Assembly (NCBI RefSeq): GCF_000455205.1
Contig: NZ_AUWQ01000096.1
Coordinates: forward strand, 1-56,048
Direction: 5' to 3'
Origin: Mycobacterium sp. UM_CSW
GTDB taxonomy: Bacteria; Actinomycetota; Actinomycetes; Mycobacteriales; Mycobacteriaceae
DNA length: 56,048 bases
Notes under the pieces: model-generated
Seen by the model: only the letters and a program-made list of their open reading frames with translations
Told to the model about the DNA's origin: nothing
The model's database searches: none
Made by a program: the position numbers and the translations under genes
Shown here: positions 43,967 through 45,322 of the stretch, in pieces
Numbering within the stretch: position 1 is the stretch's first letter
Layout of the letters: each line of letters starts with the position of its first letter

Positions 43967-44767
43967 ATGCGCAACGATGCAGGGATGCGGTGTGACGTTG
44001 CGCGTGAGGCGCTTTCTGCGCGACTGGACGGCGAGCGTCCGCAGGTGCTCGCGCAACAGGTCGATGCCCATCTTGAGTCGTGCCGCGGTTGCCGCACCTG
44101 GCTGATCGGCGCGGCGGTCCAGTCGCGCCGGCTGTCCTCCATTGCGCCGGGCGAGGGACCGGACCTGGTCGGCAAGATCATGGCCAGCCTCGATCAGCAG
44201 GCACCCGCGTATCACCGCTCGATGCGCTGGTTGCGCTCGCGCTACCGGCGCTGGGGGCTGATCGGCGTCGGCCTGTTCCAGGTCGCGATCGCGGCCGCCC
44301 AGATCAGCGGCATCAACTTCGGCATGGTGTCGAGCCACATGCACGGCGCCATGTCGGGTGAGCACCTGATGCACGAGTCCACCGCATGGTTGCTGGCGTT
44401 GGGTCTGGCCATGATCGCCGCGGGGGTTTGGCCCGCCACCGCGATTGGCGTGGCGGCGATTACCGGCGTGTATTCCGTCGCGCTATTGAGTTACGTGGTC
44501 GTCGACGCCTTCGCCGGCGAGGTCACCGCGACACGCATCGCAAGCCACATGCCCCTGCTGCTCGGGCTCGTGTTCGCGTTGCTGGTGGCGCGCGAATATG
44601 TGCGGACCCGGCGGCCGCACTCCTCCGGCAAGGACGCCGACGACCCTGACTCGCCGTCGGAGGCGCCAGCGGGTCGGCGGCACCGGCATCTCTGGCCGAT
44701 CAACCGCTCGGCCTCTACGACGACCCGTCGTAGACCGATCGCACCCGTCCAACTAAGGTGGTTGGCT
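43967..44767 (+). CDS. Zinc-anti-sigma membrane module, in frame with sigC
   Basis: About 267 codons before the sigC ATG. The N-terminal ZAS motif is clear: C in MRCDVAREALSARLDGE, then HLESCRGCRTWL, giving C...H-x3-C-x2-C. Then about four membrane helices: GLIGVGLFQVAIAAAQISG; ESTAWLLALGLAMIAAGVW; AIGVAAITGVYSVALLSYVV; and HMPLLLGLVFALLVAREYV. The first external loop (about 44320-44380) reads MVSSHMHGAMSGEHLMHES, rich in His and Met. No stop separates it from sigC; the codons run on to ATG 44768. Start 43967 or 43985 is uncertain. Anti-sigma function is inferred from domain and position. Confidence 0.8.
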
Positions 44768-45322
44768 ATGACCGCGTCAAGCGACGACGAGGCCGTCACC
44801 GACCTCGCGTTGGCAGCCGCACGCGGGAACGAGCGAGCGCTCGAGGCTTTCATCAAAGCGACCCAGCAAGACGTTTGGCGTTTCGTCGCCTATCTTTCCG
44901 ACGCGAACACCGCGGACGACCTGACGCAGGAGACCTTCCTGCGAGCGATCGGCGCTATCGAGCGGTTCTCCGGACGATCCAGTGCCCGAACCTGGCTGCT
45001 GGCTATCGCGCGCCGCGTCGTGGCTGATCACATCCGTTACGCCCAGTCGCGGCCCCGCACCGCATCCGCCGCCGATCCCGCCCAATTCCACAGCGGCGAT
45101 CGCAATCACCGAGGGTTCGAAGACCTGGTCGAGGTGACCACGATGATCGCGAACCTCACTACGGAGCAGCGGGAGGCGCTGTTGCTCACGCAGTTGCTCG
45201 GGCTGCCCTACGCCGACGCCGCGGCGGTCTGCGGGTGCCCCGTCGGCACCATCCGGTCCCGCGTTGCCCGGGCCCGCGATGCGCTGCTGGCCGACGCGGA
45301 GCGCGAAGACCTCACCGGCTAA
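44768..45322 (+). CDS. sigC: ECF RNA polymerase sigma factor SigC
   Basis: 184 residues from ATG 44768, the length of M. tuberculosis SigC (Rv2069, about 185). Region 2: YLSDANTADDLTQETFLRAI, then RTWLLAIARRVVADHIRY. Region 4: LTTEQREALLLTQLLGLPYA, then CGCPVGTIRSRVARARDAL. The gene has its own strong ribosome binding site (AAGGTGG, 44755-44761, six bases before ATG) even though the upstream anti-sigma frame runs into it without a stop. SigC is an extracytoplasmic-function sigma factor; M. tuberculosis SigC has been linked to copper acquisition. It overlaps the cobK stop region by four bases (convergent). Confidence 0.95.
   Translation: MTASSDDEAVTDLALAAARGNERALEAFIKATQQDVWRFVAYLSDANTADDLTQETFLRAIGAIERFSGRSSARTWLLAIARRVVADHIRYAQSRPRTASAADPAQFHSGDRNHRGFEDLVEVTTMIANLTTEQREALLLTQLLGLPYADAAAVCGCPVGTIRSRVARARDALLADAEREDLTG

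What the first reader, a model, noticed from the sequence alone, without database searches (positions are those of the whole stretch)
43967..45322. Anti-sigma membrane module runs in frame into SigC; first external loop rich in His and Met
There is no stop between the ZAS-membrane part and SigC, so a single anti-sigma-sigma polypeptide is possible, yet sigC has its own strong ribosome binding site and ATG. Out-of-frame stops lie just before sigC, so one base would separate them. The HMHGAM...EHLMHE loop between helices 1 and 2 is a plausible Cu/Zn-binding sensor; SigC in M. tuberculosis has been connected with copper supply. A dual-product gene for a metal-sensing sigma switch would be new to me.
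Basis: partly seen in the sequence, partly recalled or inferred. Interest (0 to 1): 0.72.

Follow-up and report, generated by a model that had tools for sequence, protein, structure and literature searches.

The report
Copper-linked sigma factor fused to inhibitor
In this mycobacterium one gene encodes both a membrane-anchored inhibitor and the transcription factor it probably holds back (SigC); the join is kept open in many related species, yet the factor also keeps its own start site, so one gene may make two products.

Summary
In detail: one open frame (43985 or 43967 to 45322) joins a zinc-finger, four-helix DUF2275 membrane protein to SigC. It is no sequencing slip: 80 of 297 genus genomes keep it full-length and open. 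The fusion is already in print (PMC7563442, PMC8999054). Added here: (1) the linker is held open: 75 orthologues, nine lengths, all multiples of three, no in-frame stop. (2) SigC's own start codon is kept: ATG, GTG or TTG in 75 of 75. (3) A palindrome, TACGAC-N5-GTCGTA, lies in the linker and persists in five loci without an inhibitor half; similar sites precede blaI, cydA and atpI here, so it is probably a BlaI operator. (4) Inhibitor and SigC occur together in 190 genomes, SigC alone in 3, inhibitor alone in 2, neither in 102. (5) Separate inhibitor copies carry a SigC-type promoter in 22 of 29 loci; some lie among copper genes. Best reading: fused anti-SigC, external histidines probably sensing copper, free SigC from the internal start. 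Inhibition, metal binding and release are untested. New variant of a known kind.

The parts
43985..45322 (+). fused anti-sigma-SigC open reading frame (alternative start ATG 43967; open from TTG 43889)
43991..44095 (+). zf-HC2 anti-sigma zinc finger, H35-x3-C39-x2-C42, cytoplasmic
   Evidence: Pfam zf-HC2 37.3 bits, cut-off 22.2; H35, C39, C42 in 75 of 75
44150..44614 (+). DUF2275, four membrane helices, both ends in the cytoplasm
   Evidence: hydropathy and positive charges; four long helices in a low-confidence model
44315..44383 (+). first external loop with H124, H126, H133, H136, E137
   Evidence: H124, H133, H136, E137 in 75 of 75, H126 in 73 of 75
44546..44548 (+). H194, at the end of the second external loop
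   Evidence: 75 of 75
44597..44767 (+). linker, low pLDDT (probably disordered), frame kept open
44716..44732 (.). palindrome TACGAC-N5-GTCGTA inside the coding linker, probable BlaI operator
44731..44736 (+). TAGACC, where 54 of 78 rows have a -10-like TANNNT; possible internal sigC promoter, weak in the window
44756..44761 (+). AGGTGG, ribosome site of sigC
   Evidence: AGG in 65 of 75, TGG in 69 of 75
44768..45322 (+). sigC with its own start codon
   Evidence: NCBIfam SigC equivalog over cut-off; a start codon in 75 of 75
43898..43928 (-). GGGAAC-N17-CGACCACT, SigC-type promoter facing the divergent PPE gene
42313..43827 (-). divergent PPE gene (PPE-PPW), possible SigC target
   Evidence: Pfam PPE 195.8 bits, PPE-PPW 36 bits for 42316-43824

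Best explanation
The N-terminal half is the anti-sigma factor of SigC, fused in frame to SigC. The zinc finger binds SigC in cis, so SigC is tethered and silent at the membrane. The two external loops carry conserved His (and one Glu) that most likely bind copper; when copper is scarce the grip loosens, or the linker is cut, and SigC transcribes copper-supply genes. A second route makes free SigC from the internal start, probably from an internal promoter that BlaI represses through the palindrome, tying sigC to respiratory-chain stress. Shown here by sequence: conserved fusion, conserved internal start and palindrome, genus-wide partnership of inhibitor and SigC, SigC-type promoters before separate inhibitor copies. 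Inferred: inhibition, copper sensing, release, internal promoter and BlaI binding.
For: Frame kept open: 0 of 75 sequences have an in-frame stop in codons 247-268, against 51 and 72 of 75 in the other frames; nine linker lengths, all multiples of three. Residues 237-249 are constrained as protein (dN/dS 0.35) (600 sampled pairs). Start kept: 72 ATG, 2 GTG, 1 TTG. Synonymous change falls to 0.07 at codons 264-268 and 0.195 at 250-256, against 0.42-0.55 in the other nine blocks. Palindrome: perfect in 78 of 81 rows and in 13 of 14 further loci, five of them without an inhibitor half. Partnership: SigC in 193 of 297 genomes, inhibitor in 192, both in 190. All six sampled genomes with a close SigC but no intact inhibitor half beside it (G075, G115, G143, G161, G188, G237) have a separate copy. 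Separate copies: SigC-type motif 36-37 nt before the start in 22 of the 29 loci whose start was found. Copper ATPase, DUF5134 and CopD/CtaG-like genes beside separate copies (names by eye). SigC raises ctpB and the nrp operon in M. tuberculosis (PMC7924339, passages).
Against: No protein or transcript was examined. Relatives share ancestry, so counts are not independent. Shuffled free linker bases give a stop in only 21% of cases per sequence. The structure model is poor (pLDDT 53, pTM 0.27) and shows no trusted contact between finger and sigma. H136 is Asn or Asp in the seven unbroken separate homologues aligned and L200 also lacks H194, so the metal site may not be general. The window's -10 is TAGACC, not TANNNT. 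The eight palindrome sites in this genome are fewer than the reversed control gives (18); only placement speaks for BlaI. The palindrome is missing from seven loci of the more distant SigC group and from L130. The fused gene has no GGGAAC motif 36 nt before 43985, unlike the separate copies. The motif is not more frequent than its control genome-wide. The nrp marker FcoT was not found in this genome, so the known SigC target operon seems absent here. G083, G126 and G251 have SigC and no inhibitor match.
Confidence: 0.6

Rival explanations
1. Only the long fused protein is made; the internal start, ribosome site and palindrome are relics of the time when the genes were separate.
For: The separate state exists in relatives, with the inhibitor ending ...NRSAA or similar just before the palindrome.
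Against: The internal signals are still under nucleotide constraint in fused species (pS 0.07 and 0.195), and the start codon varies only among start codons.
Confidence: 0.17
2. The open frame is a neutral loss of the inhibitor's stop codon; the useful products are still a membrane inhibitor with a tail and SigC from its own start.
For: Part of the linker (257-263) shows no protein constraint (dN/dS 1.09). In M. tuberculosis SigC was seen only from the short start (PMC2897130, passages; that paper says it contradicts an earlier report of a longer form).
Against: No stop and only multiple-of-three length changes in 75 orthologues; a translated inhibitor necessarily runs into SigC.
Confidence: 0.13
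3. The sensor half reads something other than copper: zinc, haem, or the redox state of the respiratory chain.
For: His clusters bind several ligands; sites of the palindrome type precede cydA and atpI in this genome, pointing to respiration.
Against: Neighbouring genes and SigC-type promoters point to copper (PMC7924339).
Confidence: 0.3
4. The palindrome acts as an RNA hairpin near the sigC start rather than as a DNA operator.
For: It could form a six-pair stem about 35 nt before sigC (not folded here).
Against: Sites before cydA, atpI and blaI change one arm only (TACTAC with GTCGTA, TACGAC with GTAGTA), which breaks the pairing, and they stand before genes without the linker.
Confidence: 0.08

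Closest known systems
ECF36 sigma factors with N-terminal DUF2275 extension (PMC8999054, passages); sigC-Rv0093c fusion in the M. avium complex (PMC7563442, passages)
   Same: Same architecture: membrane DUF2275 anti-sigma fused before SigC.
   Different: The passages I read do not mention the internal start, palindrome, conserved His or a copper link for the fusion. The papers behind these notes were not read: the NAR 2021 classification is not held and reference 47 of PMC7563442 was not identified.
IutY of Pseudomonas putida (ECF243; PMC8999054, passages)
   Same: Sigma and membrane anti-sigma in one polypeptide; metal-supply response.
   Different: Anti-sigma lies C-terminal and is released by proteolysis on a siderophore signal; here it is N-terminal, has four helices, and sigma keeps a separate start.
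M. tuberculosis SigC and Rv0093c
   Same: SigC counterpart; sigC is named a BlaI regulon member (PMC8265638, passages).
   Different: There sigC is called monocistronic with no known anti-sigma (PMC7924339, passages). The M. tuberculosis locus was not read here; that Rv0093c is one of the separate copies is inferred from PMC7563442.
CorE of Myxococcus xanthus (PMC8999054, abstract)
   Same: ECF sigma factor controlled by a metal-sensing extension.
   Different: Its sensor is a C-terminal extension, not a membrane anti-sigma.

Membership tests
ECF36/SigC with fused DUF2275 | SigC equivalog model over cut-off | tested here: met
   351.7 bits, cut-off 219
ECF36/SigC with fused DUF2275 | N-terminal DUF2275 with three to four membrane helices | tested here: met
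   151.9 bits, cut-off 24.6; four segments
ECF36/SigC with fused DUF2275 | Assignment to ECF36 by the published ECF models | not testable with these tools
   Models not in the libraries; the paper is not held
ZAS zinc-finger anti-sigma factors | H-x3-C-x2-C zf-HC2 finger | tested here: met
   37.3 bits, cut-off 22.2; H35, C39, C42 in 75 of 75
ZAS zinc-finger anti-sigma factors | Binds and inhibits its sigma factor | not testable with these tools
   Only genomic partnership: both in 190 of 297 genomes
BlaI-controlled genes | Site of the same kind at blaI itself | tested here: met
   TACGACGGCCGGTAGTA 58 nt before the only PF03965 gene found
BlaI-controlled genes | Site count above chance in the genome | tested here: not met
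   8 sites, reversed control 18
BlaI-controlled genes | Binding by BlaI | not testable with these tools
   Needs a binding assay
SigC-controlled genes | SigC-type motif before the inhibitor | tested here: inconclusive
   Present before 22 of 29 separate copies but not before the fused gene; in the window it faces the PPE gene
Copper sensors | Metal binding by the loop | not testable with these tools
   Conserved His only
Sigma factors released by intramembrane proteolysis (IutY type) | Cleavage in the membrane or linker | not tested
   No assay or site search was run

The most novel reading that the evidence does not exclude
One gene is a two-input switch with two products: a membrane-tethered sigma factor that carries its own copper-reading inhibitor in cis, and a free sigma factor made from a BlaI-repressed promoter and start nested inside the linker, so that copper status and respiratory stress act on the same regulon by separate routes.
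Probability: 0.35. Interest if true: 0.78.

Novelty: new variant of a known kind. Interest (0 to 1): 0.58.

Why it matters
[quoted passage not shown] The genus-wide pairing of DUF2275-type proteins with SigC names a candidate, and its external loops can be tested in harmless strains. A probable repressor site kept inside a coding linker, constrained as DNA while the frame stays open, is an unusual case of nested regulation.

Tried and rejected
Sequencing indel: rejected, 77 of 80 relatives show no stop. RNA hairpin: disfavoured. The nrp operon as local target: FcoT not found in this genome (none of the 14 control genomes rang, but the same model rang in 64 of 297 genus genomes). DUF2275 outside the genus: none in the other 84 genera of an order sample nor in the other 235 genera of a phylum sample. 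The model is weak on distant forms: it misses G049, where one search finds an inhibitor, and does not reach P0002 at E 0.001, so absence elsewhere is not shown. Structure: model too poor for fold searches, none run. My first count of SigC genomes (195) used the fused query, which also scores the inhibitor half; I replaced it by a SigC-only search (193). Rows dropped before the 75-row alignment: L044, L090, L114 (changed end, deletion, cut by contig) and L099-L101 (stops). In the promoter count, L230 dropped out because my pattern did not find its start, and L212 and L214 repeat L200 and L197. Among the seven separate copies inside the loci first searched the motif stands before three (L197, L200, L203) and not before L201, L205, L207, L210; of L161-L164 none has it. 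The tree has low support at deep nodes, so one or two fusions cannot be told apart. Papers on BlaI and cydA in mycobacteria: search listing only.

Full report
What is there. The frame 43967-45322 is open for 451 codons. It holds a zf-HC2 finger (residues 9-43), DUF2275 (62-216) and SigC (268-451). Hydropathy gives four membrane segments; the finger side and the linker side are rich in Arg/Lys while the first external loop has none, so both ends lie in the cytoplasm. The likelier start is ATG 43985: that Met is in 75 of 75 orthologues and separate homologues begin there.

Is it an artefact? No. In a sample of 297 genus genomes 80, this one included, carry a match from query residue 1-5 to 451 with no stop (counted from its rows; list). 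Four more full-length matches have stops (G071, G094, G117, G183). Of 80 named relatives, which partly overlap that sample, 77 show no stop in the matched stretch; M. celatum, M. kyorinense and strain MFM001 have stops before sigC. In split relatives the inhibitor ends ...NRSAA, NQSAA or NRTAA, where the fused proteins run on. The eight separate homologues aligned also end HL...AA.

The join is kept. Among 75 orthologues (this window and 74 of the 80 named; six dropped, see Tried and rejected) codons 247-268 contain no in-frame stop, while the other two frames contain one in 51 and 72 of 75. The linker has nine lengths from 60 to 90 nt, all multiples of three. Residues 237-249 are constrained as protein (dN/dS 0.35, 600 sampled pairs). 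Residues 257-263 are not (1.09), yet the frame stays open. Relatedness inflates these counts, and the palindrome and ribosome site themselves supply many of the out-of-frame stops. Shuffling the free bases gives a stop in 21% of cases per sequence on average, so the evidence is cumulative, not overwhelming.

SigC's own start is kept too. The codon is ATG in 72, GTG in 2 and TTG in 1 of 75. Synonymous change is 0.07 at codons 264-268 and 0.195 at 250-256, against 0.42-0.55 in the other nine blocks; the first block has few synonymous sites. In M. tuberculosis, tagging showed translation only from the short start, contrary to an earlier report of a longer form (PMC2897130, passages); the SigC model puts that start within one residue of ours.

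The palindrome. TACGAC-N5-GTCGTA lies at 44716-44732. It is perfect in 78 of 81 rows and in 13 of 14 further loci in which the halves are split, duplicated, or one is lost or decayed; five of these have no inhibitor half. So it is kept as DNA. It is missing from L130 and from seven loci of the more distant SigC group. The looser form TACNACN5GTNGTA has eight sites in this genome; the reversed control gives 18, so the count alone means nothing. Placement does: one site lies 58 nt before the only BlaI-family gene found, one 42 nt before cydA, one in the gap before atpI; the other four besides sigC are not obviously placed. In relatives exact copies lie just before a CopD/CtaG-like gene in two loci (names by eye; L200, L205) and past the end of the broken inhibitor in L203. 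M. tuberculosis sigC and atpH are named members of the BlaI regulon in PMC8265638 (passages). A -10-like TANNNT overlaps the right arm in 54 of 78 rows; here it is the weaker TAGACC.

Partner and signal. SigC occurs in 193 of 297 genomes and the DUF2275-type protein in 192. Both occur in 190, SigC alone in 3 (G083, G126, G251), inhibitor alone in 2 (G074, G258), neither in 102 (Fisher p 2e-73, not corrected for relatedness). In the six sampled genomes with a close SigC but no intact inhibitor half beside it, a separate copy is present elsewhere. Six of 80 fused genomes have a further inhibitor match: in G150 it is a second fused copy, and in G250 (L203) it is broken. FcoT, a marker of the nrp operon, is found in 64 genomes, all with SigC.

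Promoters. GGGAAC-N16-18-CGAC[CT] occurs 31 times in 201,516 bases of 17 loci chosen around SigC or FcoT genes, against 2 to 4 for five control patterns. It precedes the PPE gene in 11 of the 15 loci taken around FcoT, and HMA-domain (copper-type, by eye) genes at seven sites. It stands 36-37 nt before the separate inhibitor in 22 of the 29 loci whose start was found, two of which repeat loci already held; four of the seven without it differ only in the first base or in spacing or -10. The fused gene lacks it at that place. In the window a perfect site faces the divergent PPE-PPW gene, and a one-mismatch site stands before another PPE gene of this genome. The site before the window's PPE gene is present in full in 7 of 10 sequences printed, with one change in L066 and absent in L093 and L095. 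Genome-wide, with one mismatch allowed, the pattern matches no more often than its control (5 against 16).

Sensor. H124, H133, H136, E137 and H194 are present in 75 of 75, H126 in 73. In separate homologues H133 is kept in the seven unbroken ones, H136 is Asn or Asp, and L200 lacks H194. Copper is inferred from neighbours, promoters and PMC7924339; zinc, haem or redox remain open.

Evolution. Of 97 tips in the tree, 75 are fused, 14 of them in a Mycolicibacter clade; nine split and six inhibitor-less tips are scattered among the rest, with seven distant ones as outgroup (one split tip, L130, falls with the outgroup). One early fusion with later reversals, or two fusions, fit; support at the base is low (0.665).

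Novelty. The fusion is in print (PMC7563442, PMC8999054; passages only). In ten searches of the held library (listings, and passages of nine papers) I met no account of the nested palindrome, the kept internal start of the fused gene, or DUF2275 as copper-linked anti-SigC; most subscription papers are not held. The original report of the BlaI regulon is recalled, not read.

Noticed in passing
window 38246-38705 (reverse-strand ORF 38246-40495): The C-terminal tail of a glycosyltransferase-like ORF (by eye) consists of Lys/Ala/Pro repeats of about 18 residues (54-nt unit, 93% matches).
   Followed up: partly
window 40850-41851 (-): PE-PGRS-like ORF with Gly-rich repeats (by eye), near the PPE gene.
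   Followed up: no
G000:C11:70370-70386, G000:C12:150888-150904 (L134, L135): Palindromes of the same type before cydA and atpI: a possible respiratory regulon shared with sigC in this genome.
   Followed up: partly
L211 about 17040-17260: In a relative (G172) a BlaI-like gene (by eye) stands divergently beside a SigC-family gene, with a SigC-type motif between them and no palindrome.
   Followed up: partly
L131 (G150): A second, partly diverged copy of the fused gene in the same genome.
   Followed up: no
G083, G251: Genomes with three SigC-family matches and no inhibitor match.
   Followed up: no
window 45319-48757 (-): Cobalamin-synthesis-like genes follow sigC convergently (by eye).
   Followed up: no
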